Shown here: positions 10,044 to 57,226 of the stretch, one piece after another
Layout: each line of letters begins with the position of its first letter
How positions within the stretch are numbered: position 1 is the first letter of the stretch
From: Bacteroidota bacterium
Lineage (GTDB): Bacteria; Bacteroidota; Bacteroidia; Flavobacteriales_D; Crocinitomicaceae
Reading direction: 5' to 3'
Length of the DNA: 64,000 nt
NCBI GenBank assembly: GCA_016192075.1
Contig: JACPUU010000004.1
Span: 124,001 to 188,000 of the forward strand
Notes under the pieces: model-generated
The model's input: the letters and a program-made list of their open reading frames with translations, nothing else
Database searches by the model: none
What the model was told of the DNA's origin: nothing
Program-made: the position numbers and the translations under genes

Positions 10044-10157
10044 TTGCGGTACAGGTTCTTTAGTCAGCAATTGCCGGATTGAACGTAACGTATCCTGCAA
10101 TTACAGTGATATACGAATTCTATACTTTAGGGATGGCAGTAATCAGAAGCGATCTTA

Positions 10158-10232
10158 CTTTTCCCTTCGGCAGTACTAACTGCATCAGGTTCCAAGGGTA
10201 TTTCTCAGCACAAATAGTGCACCCCTAAAGTT
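10158..10232 (-). promoter_or_regulatory. TPP riboswitch (THI element)
   Basis: Read on the minus strand, the sequence shows the TPP aptamer in order: the P1-side GGGGTGC, the THI-box GCTGAGAAATACCC, GGAACCTGATGCAGTTA and the closing GCCGAAGGGAA. These are the conserved thiamine pyrophosphate-binding bulges. It lies about 115 bases upstream of thiS. When TPP binds, the operon thiS to thiF should be repressed; in this phylum control may be at translation start or transcription, and I see no clear terminator hairpin between the aptamer and thiS, which leans to translational control. Confidence 0.95.
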
Positions 10233-10474
10233 TTTACGAAGATACCATTTTTATTTGGTTGGCTGCTTTGGACTTATGAACCATGGTTCATAAATGACCC
10301 TATCCCGGGTTTTTCAGAAACCAATTTGCTGGCTCAAAGCAGGCATGGTCAGCAGTTGCATAAACCACATTAAAATACATCGTTTCATATTCTTTTTTGA
10401 AACGAAGGTGGTGACAAGGTGCTTTTTTTGAAAATTGATTTACGCACGGCGGCGGGTTGATTTGCGAAAGGCGC

Positions 10475-31332: not shown

Positions 31333-32121
31333 ATGACAAAAACATCATTTGAAGAATTGTTAGAAGCAGGTGTTCACTTCGGACACTTGAAAAGTAAATG
31401 GAACCCTTACATGGCTCCATATATTTTCACTGAGAAAAAAGGAATTCACATCCTTGATCTGAACAAAACAGCAGTGCACCTTGATCAGGCTTGCGCAGCG
31501 CTGAAACAGATTGCAAAATCAGGAAAAAAAGTATTATTTGTTGCTACTAAAAAACAAGCAAAAGATATTCTTGTTGATCGTGTAAGACCAACAAAAATGC
31601 CTTTCGTTGTTGAGCGCTGGTCAGGCGGAATGCTTACCAATTTTGGTACTATCCGTAAAGCGATCCGTAAAATGGCGTCTATTGATAAAATGGATGAAGA
31701 CGGAACAATGGCTACCCTTTCAAAAAGAGAGCGTCTGCAAATGTCCCGTACACGTGCCAAACTTGACAAAAACTACGGAACCATTGCTGACATGACCCGC
31801 GTACCTGCAGCTATTTTCGTAATTGATGTTTTGAAAGAACACATTGCGGTTAAAGAAGCAAAAAAATTGGGCATTCCTACCTTTGCAATGGTAGATACCA
31901 ATTCTGATCCACGCGGTATTGATTTTGTTATCCCGTCAAATGACGATGCTACCAAATCAATTGCAAAAATTCTTGACAAAGTAACTGAAGCTATCAATGA
32001 AGGATTGGAAGAGCGTAAAACTTCAAGAGCAGGGGTAAAAGAAGAAGCTGAAGAAGGCGCAAAAAAAACAACCCGTTCAAAAGGACAGACAAAAGTGAAC
32101 GTTGAAGAGTCAGAAAATTAA
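31333..32121 (+). CDS. rpsB: 30S ribosomal protein S2
   Basis: 262 residues. Conserved features include EAGVHFGHLKSKWNPYMAPY, FVATKKQAKDI, VERWSGGMLTNF and PTFAMVDTNSDP. The last 35 residues form a charged tail (Glu/Lys-rich, ending VEESEN) longer than in E. coli, common in this phylum. Followed after 26 bases by tsf, the universal rpsB-tsf pair. Confidence 0.98.
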   Translation: MTKTSFEELLEAGVHFGHLKSKWNPYMAPYIFTEKKGIHILDLNKTAVHLDQACAALKQIAKSGKKVLFVATKKQAKDILVDRVRPTKMPFVVERWSGGMLTNFGTIRKAIRKMASIDKMDEDGTMATLSKRERLQMSRTRAKLDKNYGTIADMTRVPAAIFVIDVLKEHIAVKEAKKLGIPTFAMVDTNSDPRGIDFVIPSNDDATKSIAKILDKVTEAINEGLEERKTSRAGVKEEAEEGAKKTTRSKGQTKVNVEESEN

Positions 32122-32147: not shown

Positions 32148-32984
32148 ATGGAAATGGTGATTACAGCAGCGCAGGTAAATGACCTCAGAGCAAAAACCGG
32201 TGCAGGGATGATGGATTGTAAAAAAGCGTTGGTTGAGGCAAACGGTGATATCCAGGAGGCAATTGACATCCTTCGTAAAAAAGGACAAAAAGTTGCAGCA
32301 AAAAGAGGAGACAACGAAGCGAAAGAAGGTTTGGCAATTGCTAAGATTTTTAATGACGGAAAATCAGGCGTTGTTCTTGCATTGAACTGTGAAACAGATT
32401 TCGTTGCAAAAAATGAGTCATACTATAAACTGGTTGACAGCTTTGTAGACCTGGCTGCAAAAACCCGTCCTGCTTCTGTTGAAGCTTTGATGAATGCAAA
32501 ATATGATGATACACTGACAGTAGCTGAAAAAATTACTGAGCAAATTGGTGTTATTGGTGAAAAACTGGAAATTTCAAACCTGAATATCCTGGATGCTGAA
32601 GCAGTTGTTGCTTACAACCACCCGGGAAATCAGATTGCAACACTGGTTGCACTTTCTAAAGGAGGTGACGCCGCAGTTGATGCCGGAAAACAAGTAGCCA
32701 TGCAGGTTGCTGCCATGTCTCCGATTGCGTTGAACAAAGAAGGTGTTGACGCTGATACAATCAGAAGAGAAGTTGAAATTGGAAAAGAATTAGCGATTCA
32801 GGAAGGTAAACCTGCTGAAATGGCTGAGAAAATTGCACAAGGACGTCTTCAGAAATTCTTTAAAGAGAGCACACTGTTGAGCCAGGAGTTTATCCGCGAC
32901 AACAAGAAATCAGTTGAGCAATTCCTCAACGATACACTGGCGGGATTAACCGTAACAGACTTCAAACGGGTATCGCTGAAATAA
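32148..32984 (+). CDS. tsf: translation elongation factor Ts
   Basis: EF-Ts releases GDP from EF-Tu. 278 residues with the N-terminal UBA-like domain (VNDLRAKTGAGMMDCKKALV) and the core motif VLALNCETDFVAKNESY. Directly after rpsB. Its transcript should end in part at the hairpin at 33002-33029. Confidence 0.98.
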   Translation: MEMVITAAQVNDLRAKTGAGMMDCKKALVEANGDIQEAIDILRKKGQKVAAKRGDNEAKEGLAIAKIFNDGKSGVVLALNCETDFVAKNESYYKLVDSFVDLAAKTRPASVEALMNAKYDDTLTVAEKITEQIGVIGEKLEISNLNILDAEAVVAYNHPGNQIATLVALSKGGDAAVDAGKQVAMQVAAMSPIALNKEGVDADTIRREVEIGKELAIQEGKPAEMAEKIAQGRLQKFFKESTLLSQEFIRDNKKSVEQFLNDTLAGLTVTDFKRVSLK

Positions 32985-33764: not shown

Positions 33765-34328
33765 ATGGAAGAAGAAGTTCAGTTGCTGCTTGATGAAGCA
33801 AAAGACGGAAATGAAAAAACAATCAACCACCTTACTGCAGAACTTGAAAAAGTAAGAGCCGGGCGTGCAACCCCATCTATGCTGGACAGTGTAAGTGTAG
33901 AATATTACGGTGCAATGACACCACTTCACCAGCTTGCCAACATCAATACCATGGATGCCCGCACCATTACAGTACAACCCTGGGAACGTGGTATTCTCGA
34001 TGCAATAGCTACCGGAATTATCAATGCAAATCTTGGATTAAATCCACAGAATAACGGAGAAATGATTATTCTGAATGTGCCGGTTCTGACTGAAGAAAGA
34101 CGTAAAGACCTTGTAAAAAAGGTAAAAGCAGAGGTAGAACATGCCAAGGTTGGAATTCGAAACAACCGTAAAGATGCAAATGATTACCTCAAAAAATTAA
34201 AGACAGATGGTCTCCCTGAAGACCGCGTTAAAGATGTCGAAACAAAAATTCAAACCCTCACCGATGCTGCCGTAAAACGTTGTGATGAACTTGCCGCTAA
34301 AAAAGAGGCAGATATCATGACTATTTAA
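33765..34328 (+). CDS. frr: ribosome recycling factor
   Basis: RRF splits the post-termination ribosome with EF-G. 187 residues, a normal length, with RAGRATPSMLDSVSVEYYG near the N-terminus and the helical RKDLVKKVKAEVEHAKVGIRN. Last gene of the translation block; the tandem repeat array begins 46 bases after its stop. Confidence 0.97.
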   Translation: MEEEVQLLLDEAKDGNEKTINHLTAELEKVRAGRATPSMLDSVSVEYYGAMTPLHQLANINTMDARTITVQPWERGILDAIATGIINANLGLNPQNNGEMIILNVPVLTEERRKDLVKKVKAEVEHAKVGIRNNRKDANDYLKKLKTDGLPEDRVKDVETKIQTLTDAAVKRCDELAAKKEADIMTI

Positions 34329-34374
34329 TAAAGTACTGGGGTACAACGTTAGAAGCAACAAGCGTCGCTATTCT

Positions 34375-34985
34375 ACTTCAAAAATCAACATTCGTTAATC
34401 GCTATTCATGATTTCGATTAGTGTTGAAGTACTCAGGTTGTCGAACGATTTTTTTCCTTTGTTTTTTCAATAAGAGAGGTTACTTCAAAAATCAACATTC
34501 GTTAATCGCTATTCATGATTTCAAATAATGTCGAAGCGCTCAGATTTCCGAACGATTTTTTCCTTTGTTTTTTCAACAGGAGAATCTACTTCAAAAATCA
34601 ACATTCGTTAATCGTTATTCATGATTTCGAATAATGTTGAAGTACTCAGGTTGCCGAACGATTTTTTCCTTTGTTTTTTCAACAAGAGAAGCTACTTCAA
34701 AAATCAACATTCGTTAATCACTATTCATGATTTCGAATAATGTTGAAGCGCTCAGATTGCCGGACGATTTTTCCTTTGTTTTTTCAATAAGGGAGATTAC
34801 TTCAAAAATCAACATTCGTTAATCGCTATTCATGATTTCGATTAGTGTTGAAGTACTCAGGTTGCCGAACGATTTTTTCCTTTGTTTTTTCAACAAGAGA
34901 AGCTACTTCAAAAATCAACATTCGTTAATCACTATTCATGATTTCAAATAATGTCGAAGTGCTCAGATTGCCGGACGATTTTTTT
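34375..34985. repeat. six tandem copies of a ~106-base non-coding unit with an imperfect palindrome
   Basis: Six units start at 34375, 34482, 34588, 34694, 34799 and 34905 (periods 107, 106, 106, 105, 106). Each begins ACTTCAAAAATCAACATTCG and has, about 20 bases later, a matching arm ending AATGTTGAAG, so TCAACATT pairs with AATGTTGA, and ACTTCAA can also pair with TTGAAGT in another register. The rest of each unit holds CTCAGnTTGCCGnACG and a T-rich tract. Copies differ at single positions, often inside the arms. The period is not a steady multiple of three, so it is not coding. There are no variable spacers. Nothing else is seen between 34329 and 35148 except the terminator at 35002-35060. 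Confidence 0.85.
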
Positions 34986-35001
34986 GCTTCGGTTATGGAA
35001 A

Positions 35002-35060
35002 TAAAAAAACCTGAAAAGAGTTTACTGATAGTCGTGGTAGTAGCATGCTCTTTTCAGGTT
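35002..35060 (-). terminator. long-stem terminator after the response regulator
   Basis: A perfect 13-base inverted repeat (AACCTGAAAAGAG/CTCTTTTCAGGTT) with a 27-base loop, followed on the minus strand by a T-run. It lies about 90 bases beyond the stop of the gene at 35149. The large loop is unusual for a simple terminator. Confidence 0.7.
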
Positions 35061-35148
35061 ACCGTGCAAGGAAATTAAAACCAGAAGCAAAAAATATTGC
35101 TTTCTGTAGGGGTAGACGAAAGTTGTTTGCAGAGGGTTGGCTGAACCC

Positions 35149-35826
35149 TTAAGATTTTGTTTCAAATTTATAGCCTACGCCTCTTAAACTTTTGAAATAC
35201 TGTGGATTACGATTGTCTTTTTCAAAATATTTTCGCAGGCTGAGAATGTAATTATCAATGGTGCGGCTGGTAGGGAACTGTTCTTTACCCCAGATGGTAT
35301 CCAGTATCAGGTCTCTCGAAACCACCTCTCCCTTTTTGGAAATCAAAAGTTTAAGCAGCTCCATTTCACGTTTGGAAACAGTATGCAGTTGCCCGTTTGC
35401 CTTAATTTCAAATGTTTTGAAATTAACCTCGTGACCATCAAAGTAGTACACGTCCGGCAGCATTTCGCTTTTTTGCCGGTCAATCAGAATGGCTACACGC
35501 AGCAGCAGCTCTTCCAGGTTAAAGGGTTTTACCAGGTAATCGTCGGCACCAAGCTTCAAACCATTAATCCGGTCGGCTGAGGTACCCTTGGCTGAAATAA
35601 AAAGAATGGGTACGTGGCTTGTCTTCCGTATTTCACGGCACACATCAAATCCACTGATCTCAGGTAACATCACATCCAATATCACCAGGTGATATGAATC
35701 GTTAAAACGGGTGAGGGCATTTTTGCCGGTAGTTGCCACATCCACCTCATAATTTTCGAGTTCAAGATTGAGGGTAAGAACATTGATCAGACTTTCTTCG
35801 TCTTCAACGAGCAGAATTTTCTTCAT
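35149..35826 (-). CDS. OmpR-family response regulator
   Basis: A 225-residue regulator with an N-terminal receiver (acidic pair VEDEE, phosphoacceptor Asp51 in VILDVMLPE, Thr/Ser-Ala in FISAKG and Lys in LVKPF) and a C-terminal winged-helix DNA-binding domain (KREMELLKLLISKKGEVVSR, TIDNYILSLRKYFE). I use the ATG at 35826, which gives MKKILLVEDE. No histidine kinase lies beside it, so it is an orphan in this window. It is divergent from folK. Confidence 0.92.
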   Translation of the reverse strand: MKKILLVEDEESLINVLTLNLELENYEVDVATTGKNALTRFNDSYHLVILDVMLPEISGFDVCREIRKTSHVPILFISAKGTSADRINGLKLGADDYLVKPFNLEELLLRVAILIDRQKSEMLPDVYYFDGHEVNFKTFEIKANGQLHTVSKREMELLKLLISKKGEVVSRDLILDTIWGKEQFPTSRTIDNYILSLRKYFEKDNRNPQYFKSLRGVGYKFETKS

Positions 35827-35899
35827 GGCATATCGATACGTGCGCACCGCAAAAGTAGGAATTTTGTTGTCTTCCTGAAAATCGGTCTAAATTTGCGCT

Positions 35900-38863: not shown

Positions 38864-39946
38864 TTAATCTTCGTCTTCTCCCTCGTCCTCTTCATCGTAG
38901 GCTTCGTCGGCCACATCTTCCTCTTCTTCTTCGTCATCGCCTCCCAGGTCATCATCTCCTACATCTGGTGTTTCTTCTCCTATATCCATTGCATCCACAT
39001 CGTCATCGTCATCGCCAATGGCAGGTGCGCCTGCGGCTCCAATAATAATCAGGTGATCAATTCCTTTATAGGTGAAAATGTACCCGCGCATTTCTTTACC
39101 CTGGTATGGGAATGTAATAACTGCAGGGTCATTGGCCTCGTTGAATTCTTTTAAAGCCAGGCGCACATCTGAATCCAGTTTTGCAACTGAACTCACAATT
39201 TTTTTCAGGTTTGGTTTACCGGGTGTGATAGGGCGGTAAACAGGTGCAGGAACGGCAGTGCTTTGCTTTGGTTCTTTCTTTGGTTTTTTCTCAGTTTCCC
39301 TGAGAACCGGCGCTTCAGTTTTTGCCGGCTTGGATGCTGGTTTTTCGGTTGTTGTTTTCACTTTACTTGTTGGCTTTGTTGTATTTTTTTCAGCACTTGG
39401 TTTGGCTGACTTAAGTTTGGAATCAGAAGGTTTGGTCTTTACAGGTGGTGCTACCGGTTTTTTTGCTGTTTTGGCAGAAACTTTTGCGGCTTTTGGAGCA
39501 GGTTTAGCTGCTTTTTTGACTGGTTTGACAACCACTTTTTTAGCGGGTTTGGCAGGTGCTGCTTTTTTAACCGGTTTAGCTACTTTTTTTGCAGGTTTAG
39601 CCGCCACTTTTTTGACCGGTTTAACTGCTTTTTTAACTGGTTTAACAACCTTTTTGGCCGGTTTTGCAGCTTTTTTAGCAGGCTTTGCCGCTTTTTTCGC
39701 AACCGGTTTCGCAACTTTTTTAGCAGGTTTAACAACCTTTTTAACAGGTTTGCTAACCTTTTTAGCCGGCTTTGCTTTCACCACTTTTTTAGGTGCCGCT
39801 TTTTTAACCGGTTTGGCCTTTGGCGCTGACTTCTTAACAGGCTTAGACTTTGCCACAACCTTTTTTACTGGTTTGGCTACTTTTTTTGCCGGTTTAGAAA
39901 CTGCTTTTTTTGCAGGCTTTGCCGGGGCTTTCTTCGCTTTTGCCAT
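38864..39946 (-). CDS. histone H1-like Lys/Ala/Pro-repeat protein with acidic tail
   Basis: A 360-residue protein in three parts. Residues 1-190 are tandem repeats of K-P-[AV]-K-K-[AV] and related pentapeptides, the pattern of bacterial histone H1-like (AlgP, Hc1) DNA-binding tails. Residues 235-300 hold a small ordered region (VAKLDSDVRLALKEFNEAND and KEMRGYIFTYKGIDHLIII). Residues 305-360 are almost all Asp and Glu. It probably binds DNA or RNA in the nucleoid, with the acidic tail competing for the basic arm. It is a single gene with its own terminator. The repeats also create a long open frame on the other strand, which is not real. Confidence 0.75.
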   Translation of the reverse strand: MAKAKKAPAKPAKKAVSKPAKKVAKPVKKVVAKSKPVKKSAPKAKPVKKAAPKKVVKAKPAKKVSKPVKKVVKPAKKVAKPVAKKAAKPAKKAAKPAKKVVKPVKKAVKPVKKVAAKPAKKVAKPVKKAAPAKPAKKVVVKPVKKAAKPAPKAAKVSAKTAKKPVAPPVKTKPSDSKLKSAKPSAEKNTTKPTSKVKTTTEKPASKPAKTEAPVLRETEKKPKKEPKQSTAVPAPVYRPITPGKPNLKKIVSSVAKLDSDVRLALKEFNEANDPAVITFPYQGKEMRGYIFTYKGIDHLIIIGAAGAPAIGDDDDDVDAMDIGEETPDVGDDDLGGDDEEEEEDVADEAYDEEDEGEDED

Positions 39947-40678: not shown

Positions 40679-41356
40679 CTATGGAATTATTCCCTGCTGC
40701 CGGAGCACCGTAACGATGAGTGGAACAAAAACAACCGCTACTTTATGTTCAAGGGGAATTGAATTTGCAAACTCACCCTCAAAATCCCAATCGTCCCAGT
40801 TCTCTGAATAAGAGGTGTACAGGTCCAGATCGACACTGTCACCGGATGCTTCCCAGTCGTCCCAGTTTTCAGAATAGGATGTGTAAACACTTGCATTCCA
40901 GGTACTGTGGTCGTCATCGACATCCCAATCGTCCCAGTTCTCAGCATAAGAGGTGTAAATGCTGATTTCAAAATTGGAGGTAACCAAGTTCCAGTCATCC
41001 CAGTTTTCAGCGTATGAGGTAGAGATACTTCCGCTGATGCCCCCTATGGAAAAATCCCAGTCATCCCAGTTTTCAGCATAGGAGGTGTAAAGTGAGCCGC
41101 TTACACCCTTGAATTGAAAATCCCAGTCATCCCAGTTTTCAGCATACGAGGTATACATTTCACCTGAAAAAGAGGGCGGAACATACGGATAGAGTCCACA
41201 GGAAAGGGAATCGTATTGACAGGAACCATTGTCTACTTCGGCGTTGTATGAATAATTGCAAGCAGCAGAATCAGTACAGCCTTCAATGGGACCTTTCTTA
41301 CAGGAAACAAATCCGGTTAGCAAGGTAAAGCATACGACAGTCCAAACGTTTTTCAT
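40679..41356 (-). CDS. exported lipoprotein with six 22-residue TSY-ENWDDW repeats
   Basis: A 225-residue protein. It begins with a lipoprotein signal peptide (Cys19 in FVSC) and a short Cys-containing module (CTDSAACNYSYNAEVDNGSC) like those found in secreted Bacteroidetes proteins. Residues 69-195 are six near-identical repeats starting at 69, 91, 113, 135, 159 and 181; the core TSY[AS]ENWDDW is invariant, and the rest is variable in charge. The C-terminus (residues 205-225) is hydrophobic. The Trp/Asp-rich 22-residue period suggests a beta-solenoid or beta-sheet stack. No family named; its role is unknown, and it sits beside T9SS cargo genes. Confidence 0.75.
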   Translation of the reverse strand: MKNVWTVVCFTLLTGFVSCKKGPIEGCTDSAACNYSYNAEVDNGSCQYDSLSCGLYPYVPPSFSGEMYTSYAENWDDWDFQFKGVSGSLYTSYAENWDDWDFSIGGISGSISTSYAENWDDWNLVTSNFEISIYTSYAENWDDWDVDDDHSTWNASVYTSYSENWDDWEASGDSVDLDLYTSYSENWDDWDFEGEFANSIPLEHKVAVVFVPLIVTVLRQQGIIP

Positions 41357-56827: not shown

Positions 56828-57226
56828 CTACAATCCGGGAAATGAGGTCACTTCCTGTACTTTAACGTCAGGGAATGAAGTCACAACCTGTATTTTAAAA
56901 TCGGGAAAAGACGTAACTTCCTGCCACTGGCCGCAGTCATCCGGGAATGATGTTACCCATTGCACTTTCAGGTCAGGAAAGGACTCTACCCATTGAATTT
57001 TAATATCCGGAAATGATTCTACAAACTGAACTTTTCCGTGCAGCGCAAAACCGTTCCAGGTACAATCAGAATTGACACTCAGAAAAAAATCAGCTTTTTG
57101 TGCATCGGTCAGTGCGGCGAATCGTGATTGGGTTGACTGGTCAGTATGGTCCTGGTACAAAAATCCGGCAAAACCAATTGCCGAAAACAGAAATGCGACT
57201 GCTAAAACAAGAGTTGATTTTTTCAT
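56828..57226 (-). CDS. exported protein with six 11-residue SFPD repeats
   Basis: 132 residues: signal-anchor-like N-terminus, a linker, then repeats with SFPD (last copy SFPG) at 71, 82, 93, 106, 117 and 128, spaced 11, 11, 13, 11 and 11. The unit is roughly 'VTSFPDxKVQxV', alternating hydrophobic and polar residues as in beta strands. Short SFPD/SFED-type repeat proteins are known in Bacteroidetes and proteobacteria with no established function. The unit length is half that of the 22-residue repeats in the protein at 40679-41356. Confidence 0.7.
   Translation of the reverse strand: MKKSTLVLAVAFLFSAIGFAGFLYQDHTDQSTQSRFAALTDAQKADFFLSVNSDCTWNGFALHGKVQFVESFPDIKIQWVESFPDLKVQWVTSFPDDCGQWQEVTSFPDFKIQVVTSFPDVKVQEVTSFPGL

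What the first reader, a model, noticed from the sequence alone, without database searches (positions are those of the whole stretch)
34375..34985. Six tandem ~106-base palindrome-bearing units between frr and a response regulator
Six units with periods 105-107 are well conserved outside a few single-base changes, and each has an imperfect palindrome of about 54 bases. The arms TCAACATT/AATGTTGA pair perfectly in most copies; ACTTCAA/TTGAAGT can pair in a second register, so two folds compete. In copy 1 an inner TAATCG/CGATTA pairing is perfect, in others it is not. Each unit also has a T-rich tract. There is no gene, no variable spacer and no fixed multiple of three. Possible roles: a DNA-binding protein array (partition or nucleoid site), an RNA made of repeating hairpins, a tandem terminator, or a recombination hotspot. 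No known element explains it.
Basis: partly seen in the sequence, partly recalled or inferred. Interest (0 to 1): 0.7.

Follow-up and report, generated by a model that had tools for sequence, protein, structure and literature searches.

The report
Tandem array of heptamer-built intergenic repeat
The six units are a lineage-specific tandem expansion of a short repeat scattered through this Bacteroidota genome, and relatives of that repeat turn out to bracket, as inverted arms built of 7-base words, genes for a poorly understood 'four-helix bundle' protein across the whole phylum.

Summary
The array is real: six units at 34375, 34482, 34588, 34694, 34799 and 34905 (periods 105-107), between frr and a convergent response regulator. 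The palindrome is not better than chance (best inverted repeat 7-8 bp against a shuffle mean of 7.0-7.8), shows no compensatory change, and RNA folding is ordinary. What matters is a 40-bp core, ACTTCNNAAATCAACATTCGTTAATCGNTATTCGATATTC, built of 7-base words (lag-7 self-identity 0.58). It is dispersed in about 16-20 intergenic sites of this genome and in other Flavobacteriales, and is tandemly amplified, with locus-specific units of 100-183 bp, at several of them. Three close relatives with the same frr/regulator synteny have no array, so it is an insertion or expansion in this lineage. At one site in the same genome (rpmA/serS) two inverted copies of the core bracket a TIGR02436/PF05635 four-helix-bundle gene (S23/23S-rRNA-IVS protein family). 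This is general: such genes are flanked by inverted heptamer arrays with locus-specific words in 58-74% of 88 loci, against 1.1% of 265 control genes. Best reading: a gene-less, tandemly amplified member of an IVS-like class of intergenic element. Mobility and mechanism are inferred.

The parts
33765..34328 (+). frr (ribosome recycling factor), upstream neighbour
   Evidence: ORF; 55-73% identical frr relatives
34373..34984 (.). tandem array, about 5.8 copies of a 106-bp unit
34375..34481 (+). unit 1 (107 bp)
34482..34587 (+). unit 2 (106 bp)
34588..34693 (+). unit 3 (106 bp)
34694..34798 (+). unit 4 (105 bp)
34799..34904 (+). unit 5 (106 bp)
34905..34984 (+). unit 6, truncated in the T tract
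34375..34413 (+). R1 core (right arm, 7-base words) of unit 1; the others start at 34482, 34588, 34694, 34799, 34905
   Evidence: model R1, 40-42 bits each; lag-7 identity 0.58
34410..34430 (+). degenerate candidate left arm GATTTCGATTAGTGTTGAAGT of unit 1 (inverse orientation); the same place in each unit
   Evidence: read by comparison; not significant on its own
34995..35075 (-). conserved hairpin plus T7: terminator-like, for the response regulator; marks the right edge of the empty site in relatives
   Evidence: folding z -4.3; conserved in L061, L062, L064
35149..35847 (-). OmpR-type response regulator, convergent neighbour
   Evidence: ORF

Best explanation
The array is a lineage-specific tandem expansion of one copy of a dispersed intergenic element. 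Shown: the 40-bp core of each unit is a run of 7-base words, occurs at about 16-20 other intergenic sites in this genome and in other Flavobacteriales, is absent from the frr/regulator gap of the close relatives, and in the same genome occurs as a pair of inverted arms around a four-helix-bundle (S23/IVS-type) gene. Shown for the wider class: four-helix-bundle genes across Bacteroidota are bracketed by inverted arrays of locus-specific 7-base words. Inferred: the window copy is a gene-less member of this IVS-like class that landed or arose on the 3' side of frr and was then multiplied by replication slippage or unequal recombination, as happened independently at other copies. Inferred: it has no dedicated role at this locus, beyond taking the place of the frr terminator that relatives carry. 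How the class moves or is copied is not known; a role of the four-helix-bundle protein in trans is a guess.
For: Dispersal: the array's own DNA finds C12, C15, C7, C22, C2 and C19 sites at E 3e-6 to 0.02. The exact 12-mer CATTCGTTAATC occurs 14 times in the genome (6 of them in the array, most others at core copies) against 0 for the same letters read backwards. Model R1 finds 41 matches in the genome at E up to 1, 29 of them below 0.01, and independent matches in G026 (2.4e-10) and G074 (2.9e-9), which were not used to build it. Tandem amplification at other copies with locus-specific units: C2 106 bp, C12 165 and 152, C1 183; G074 100 bp x4; G011 103 bp x11. Empty site: L061, L062 and L064 have frr, a short gap with a GC-rich hairpin followed by T's, then the same conserved hairpin; no R1 match in 78 frr-downstream segments. 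Gene-bearing copy: arms at C15:31869-31907(-) and 32321-32351(+) bracket a TIGR02436/PF05635 ORF between rpmA and serS. Class: inverted-arm score of at least 30 in 64% of 28 (exploration), 74% of 34 (replication), 58% of 26 (phylum-wide), against 1.1% of 265 control ORFs; lag-7 identity 0.33, 0.36, 0.32 against 0.27. Setting: 8 of 16 core sites lie in convergent gaps, baseline 20%, p 0.007 post hoc.
Against: Only one of about 16 core sites in this genome carries the gene, and many sites are solo arms without a significant partner; the left arms inside the window array are not significant by themselves. No target-site duplication or insertion event was seen between close strains; no genome of the same genus is held. 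R1 was built from copies found with the array, so own-genome scores are partly circular (the initial DNA matches and those in G026 and G074 are not). In the replication set the direct-orientation control is also raised (29% at 30 or more). In three atpA/atpG insertions, matched arms beat cross-matched arms in two of three cases only.
Confidence: 0.62

Rival explanations
1. Neutral slippage product: 7-base words grow by strand slippage in intergenic DNA, short words resemble each other by convergence, and no mobile or protein-linked element exists. The array is just one more local tandem duplication.
For: Several tandem arrays have locus-specific units; many solo arms; words differ from locus to locus.
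Against: The core is a specific 40-bp order of words with invariant positions and matches at E 1e-9 to 1e-10 in other genera and families, more than convergence would give. Inverted matching of arms around four-helix-bundle genes exceeds control about 50-fold.
Confidence: 0.17
2. Selected tandem terminator or hairpin RNA downstream of frr: each unit's hairpin and T tract ends or stabilises the frr transcript.
For: Relatives have a GC-rich terminator-like hairpin in this gap and none is called on the + strand in the array, so the array may stand in for it. T tracts in each unit.
Against: Folding z-scores near zero for most units, palindromes at chance level, no compensatory change, array absent in relatives.
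Confidence: 0.11
3. REP/BIME-type array mobilised by a RAYT (Y1 transposase).
For: Six Y1_Tnp genes in the genome; BIMEs are clusters of short intergenic repeats (PMC3733652).
Against: No core match at any of the six Y1_Tnp genes. Two of them are flanked by quite different GC-rich palindromes, GGCGCGAGCGTCCCGCTCG and GCTGCGCAGGACATATTGTCCTGCGC. The core has no GTAG/CGTC tag and is not itself a palindrome.
Confidence: 0.05
4. Array of binding sites for a DNA-binding protein (partition, nucleoid or regulator).
For: Regular 106-bp spacing, about ten helical turns, conserved core.
Against: Absent from the same locus in relatives; other arrays of the core have other spacings (100, 152, 165, 183); no gene nearby of such type.
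Confidence: 0.05

Closest known systems
23S rRNA intervening sequences (IVS) with S23p ORF, e.g. Coxiella burnetii (PMC4990558)
   Same: Complementary borders that can form a stem with a four-helix-bundle S23-family ORF in the loop; sporadic distribution, thought parasitic. ORF-less IVS also exist (own knowledge).
   Different: The elements here lie between protein genes, not in rRNA helices; arms are arrays of 7-base words whose sequence differs per locus; many are gene-less solo arms or tandem arrays; RNase III cleavage untested.
REP/BIME elements and RAYTs (PMC3733652)
   Same: Dispersed short intergenic repeats, some in inverted pairs and clusters.
   Different: Core is AT-rich, non-palindromic, without GTAG/CGTC tag, and not found at this genome's Y1_Tnp genes.
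BrickBuilt MITE of Porphyromonas gingivalis (PMC4596501)
   Same: Bacteroidota intergenic MITE-like element holding a tandem array.
   Different: BrickBuilt has 23-nt repeats with leader and tail; here units are 100-183 bp and locus-specific, and the element has gene-bearing relatives. No sequence comparison was made.
Heptanucleotide TAACTGA direct repeats of Beggiatoaceae, Cyanobacteria and some Bacteroidetes (PMC4679880)
   Same: 7-base period, intergenic.
   Different: There a single fixed word in direct orientation, mostly near start codons; here degenerate words in inverted arms around a gene or at gene 3' ends.

Membership tests
23S rRNA IVS elements | Insertion in an rRNA helix | tested here: not met
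   Copies examined lie in intergenic gaps (frr/regulator, rpmA/serS, atpA/atpG and others); 23S genes were not examined
23S rRNA IVS elements | Complementary borders enclosing an S23-family (PF05635/TIGR02436) ORF | tested here: met
   Met for C15:31869-32351 and as a class; the window array itself has no ORF
23S rRNA IVS elements | Excision by RNase III | not testable with these tools
   needs RNA experiments
REP/BIME | Core is a short palindrome with GTAG or CGTC tag | tested here: not met
   Core sequence; unit palindromes at chance level
REP/BIME | Linked RAYT flanked by the repeat | tested here: not met
   No R1 match at six Y1_Tnp loci
MITE | Terminal inverted repeats and target-site duplication matching an autonomous element | tested here: inconclusive
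   Inverted arms at some sites, empty site in relatives; no target-site duplication could be delimited; no transposase partner found
Intrinsic terminator array | Stable hairpin directly before a T run in each unit | tested here: not met
Catalogued RNA family (Rfam) | Match to a catalogued family | tested here: not met

The most novel reading that the evidence does not exclude
Bacteroidota carry an undescribed, very abundant class of small intergenic element: inverted arms made of locus-specific 7-base words around (or without) a four-helix-bundle S23/IVS-type gene, whose arms are kept complementary while their words turn over. The rRNA intervening sequences would be the rRNA-inserted branch of this class, and the window array a gene-less, amplified offshoot.
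Probability: 0.4. Interest if true: 0.82.

Novelty: new variant of a known kind. Interest (0 to 1): 0.58.

Why it matters
The array alone is a modest find: a local expansion of an unnamed dispersed repeat. What it led to is larger. The S23/IVS four-helix-bundle family is very common in Bacteroidota (45 of 61 sampled genomes, up to 16 copies each) and has no known function. If these genes sit inside inverted heptamer arms as a rule, they are the cargo or the agent of a small selfish element, and the old question of what rRNA intervening sequences are and how they spread becomes testable.

Tried and rejected
RAYT/REP link: rejected, no core at Y1_Tnp genes, some of which have their own GC-rich repeats. 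Hairpin RNA with compensatory changes: none. Rfam at a permissive threshold: only chance-level matches to eukaryotic miRNA and snoRNA families. A reverse transcriptase as mobiliser: the single RVT_1 gene (C5:119789) looks retron-like and shows no link. An array conserved at frr in relatives: absent. Arm co-turnover at three atpA/atpG insertions: suggestive only. A permutation of arm pairing among loci was spoiled by very high scores between some loci, which I take to be homologous neighbourhoods, so the control-gene and direct-orientation comparisons were used instead. Literature searches for the association found nothing, but the library is open-access only.

Full report
What is there. Between frr (33765-34328, +) and a convergent OmpR-type response regulator (35149-35847, -) the window holds six tandem units starting at 34375, 34482, 34588, 34694, 34799 and 34905. 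Tandem Repeats Finder reports 34373-34984, period 106, 5.8 copies, score 977, with higher-order periods of 211 and 317. Units are 85-96% identical to each other over 85 bp. There is no ORF of 80 aa or more in the array, no tRNA and no Rfam family.

The palindrome does not hold up. RNA folding gives z-scores of -0.2, -0.2, -2.0, -1.2, -1.2 and +0.7. Neither pairing shows a single compensatory change; the substitutions in the paired columns lie on the right-hand side only and mostly break pairs. There is no evidence here for a selected hairpin.

The core is dispersed. Searching the genome (4.65 Mb, 22 contigs) with two units finds short, strong matches on six other contigs. The 12-mer CATTCGTTAATC occurs 14 times in the genome and its backwards control not once. 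An alignment of 12 copies gives the core ACTTCNNAAATCAACATTCGTTAATCGTTATTCAATATTC. It is a run of 7-base words of the type NATTCNN: identity at lag 7 and lag 14 is 0.58-0.59 in the array's cores, against 0.09-0.41 at other lags from 3 to 15. A profile of the core (model R1, sequence only) finds 41 matches in the genome up to E = 1, and independent strong matches in other genomes of the family and order, chiefly G074 and G026. Where both arms are present they face each other with the ACTTC ends inside, for example C12:667502(-)/667536(+), C6:21961(-)/22011(+), C12:759415(-)/759490(+). Many copies are single arms. Of 16 core sites, 8 lie in convergent gaps against a baseline of 20% (p = 0.007, post hoc).

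Tandem amplification is a habit of these copies. Besides the window, the core or a weak relative of it sits in tandem units of 106 bp at C2, 165 bp at C12:695857, 152 bp at C12:793364 and 183 bp at C1:46000 in the same genome, of 100 bp (4 copies) in G074 and of 103 bp (11 copies) in G011. The units share only the core; the rest is locus-specific. So the arrays formed separately, each from a core plus its local surroundings.

The array is not ancestral at frr. frr relatives place the genome in or near Crocinitomicaceae, Flavobacteriales. The three relatives that keep frr and the conserved hairpin in this order (L061, L062, L064; in L061 and L064 the regulator follows, L062 ends at a contig edge) have 109-136 nt from the frr stop to the conserved motif, with a GC-rich hairpin followed by T's, and no array; none of 78 frr-downstream segments has a core match. 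In the window the conserved hairpin follows directly after the array. The array therefore entered, or grew, in this lineage, and takes the place where relatives carry what looks like the frr terminator.

The link to four-helix-bundle genes. At C15, between rpmA and serS (rpmA and serS named from their sequences), core copies at 31869-31907 (-) and 32321-32351 (+) bracket a 124-aa ORF that matches TIGR02436 'four helix bundle protein' at 73.6 bits (cut-off 24) and PF05635 23S_rRNA_IVP at 42.2 bits (cut-off 33.8). Both arms had been found by plain DNA similarity to the array before the ORF was noticed. I then collected relatives of this ORF from 99 genomes and read their flanks. Most carried short tandem words on both sides, in inverted orientation, with a different word at each locus. 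This was tested by scoring the local alignment of the upstream 350 bp with the reverse complement of the downstream 350 bp. In the exploration set (28 loci) 64% scored 30 or more; in a replication set fetched afterwards (34 loci) 74%; in a phylum-wide set found with the TIGR02436 model (26 loci) 58%. Of 265 control ORFs of 240-700 bp, 1.1% did. Direct orientation gave 14%, 29% and 8% (Wilcoxon p = 0.001, 0.018 and 6e-6). Flanks of all three sets have a lag-7 excess (0.33, 0.36, 0.32 against 0.27), with a further peak at lag 14. Core matches near four-helix-bundle genes of other genomes were weak but placed beside the gene (L258, L267).

How it most likely works. Shown: dispersal of the core, its heptamer build, independent tandem growth, absence from the frr gap of relatives, one gene-bearing copy in the same genome, and the class-wide inverted heptamer arms. 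Inferred: that these are one class of element; that copies move or are copied, with or without the gene; that the protein acts on the arms; and that the window array grew by slippage or unequal exchange. By anatomy, a gene-bearing member works like an rRNA intervening sequence, a stem with an S23-family ORF in the loop (PMC4990558), but the members here are not in rRNA and RNase III processing is untested, so I do not file them as IVS.

Rivals. A purely neutral origin by slippage (0.17) is the main alternative: it explains the arrays but not the specific 40-bp core shared between families, nor the inverted matching around one gene family. A terminator or RNA role at frr (0.11) is possible as a by-product, since the relatives' terminator-like hairpin is missing here, but has no structural support. 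REP/RAYT (0.05) is contradicted by the six Y1_Tnp loci, two of which carry their own GC-rich repeats. A protein-binding array (0.05) has nothing for it but regular spacing.

Limits. The genome is a draft and the copy number of near-identical units may be mis-assembled. No genome of the same genus was held. R1 was trained on own-genome copies. The gene contexts rest on a simple ORF caller. The literature library is open-access only, so 'undescribed' is provisional. Organism names of most genomes are withheld.

Noticed in passing
window 34998-35115: Strongly conserved non-coding element between frr and the response regulator in other genera (L061, L062, L064): on the - strand a 13-bp stem ending in T7, with a conserved loop (TACTGATAGTCGTGGTAG) and conserved flank (TTACCGTGCAAGGAAATTAAAACCAGAAGCAAA). 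Conservation beyond the stem suggests an unannotated small RNA or 3' UTR element; no Rfam match.
   Followed up: partly
window 40679-41356 (-): Lipoprotein-like ORF of 225 aa with five to six repeats of (L/I)YTS(Y)AENWDDW(D/E), an unusual Trp/Asp-rich repeat.
   Followed up: no
window 38864-39946 (-): 360-aa protein whose N-terminal half is a Lys/Ala/Pro-rich (KPAKKVAKPVKK) repeat, histone-H1-like, with an acidic C-terminus.
   Followed up: no
L271, L272, L273 (G005, G007, G060): Four-helix-bundle genes with heptamer arms sit between atpA and atpG in three genera, 48-58% identical proteins but with different words in the arms.
   Followed up: partly
L241 (C20:43955) and L243 (C18:168102): Y1 transposase (RAYT-like) genes with GC-rich palindromic repeats GGCGCGAGCGTCCCGCTCGTGCC and GCTGCGCAGGACATATTGTCCTGCGC on both sides.
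   Followed up: partly
L197 (C2:135560-135814): The core array there is interleaved with another degenerate word repeat, ACCACAAAGTACACCAAGGAGG(C/T)ACAGAGTACACAGAG, likely a second dispersed family of similar build.
   Followed up: no
G000:C5:119789-120328 (4 kb before the window): Retron-like reverse transcriptase ORF of 344 aa, preceded by a 259-aa ORF and a 104-aa ORF that may belong to it.
   Followed up: no
window 10145-10236 (-): TPP riboswitch, 75.9 bits.
   Followed up: no
window 56838-57034: Two 33-bp tandem repeat tracts, 73-75% matches, period a multiple of three, probably coding.
   Followed up: no
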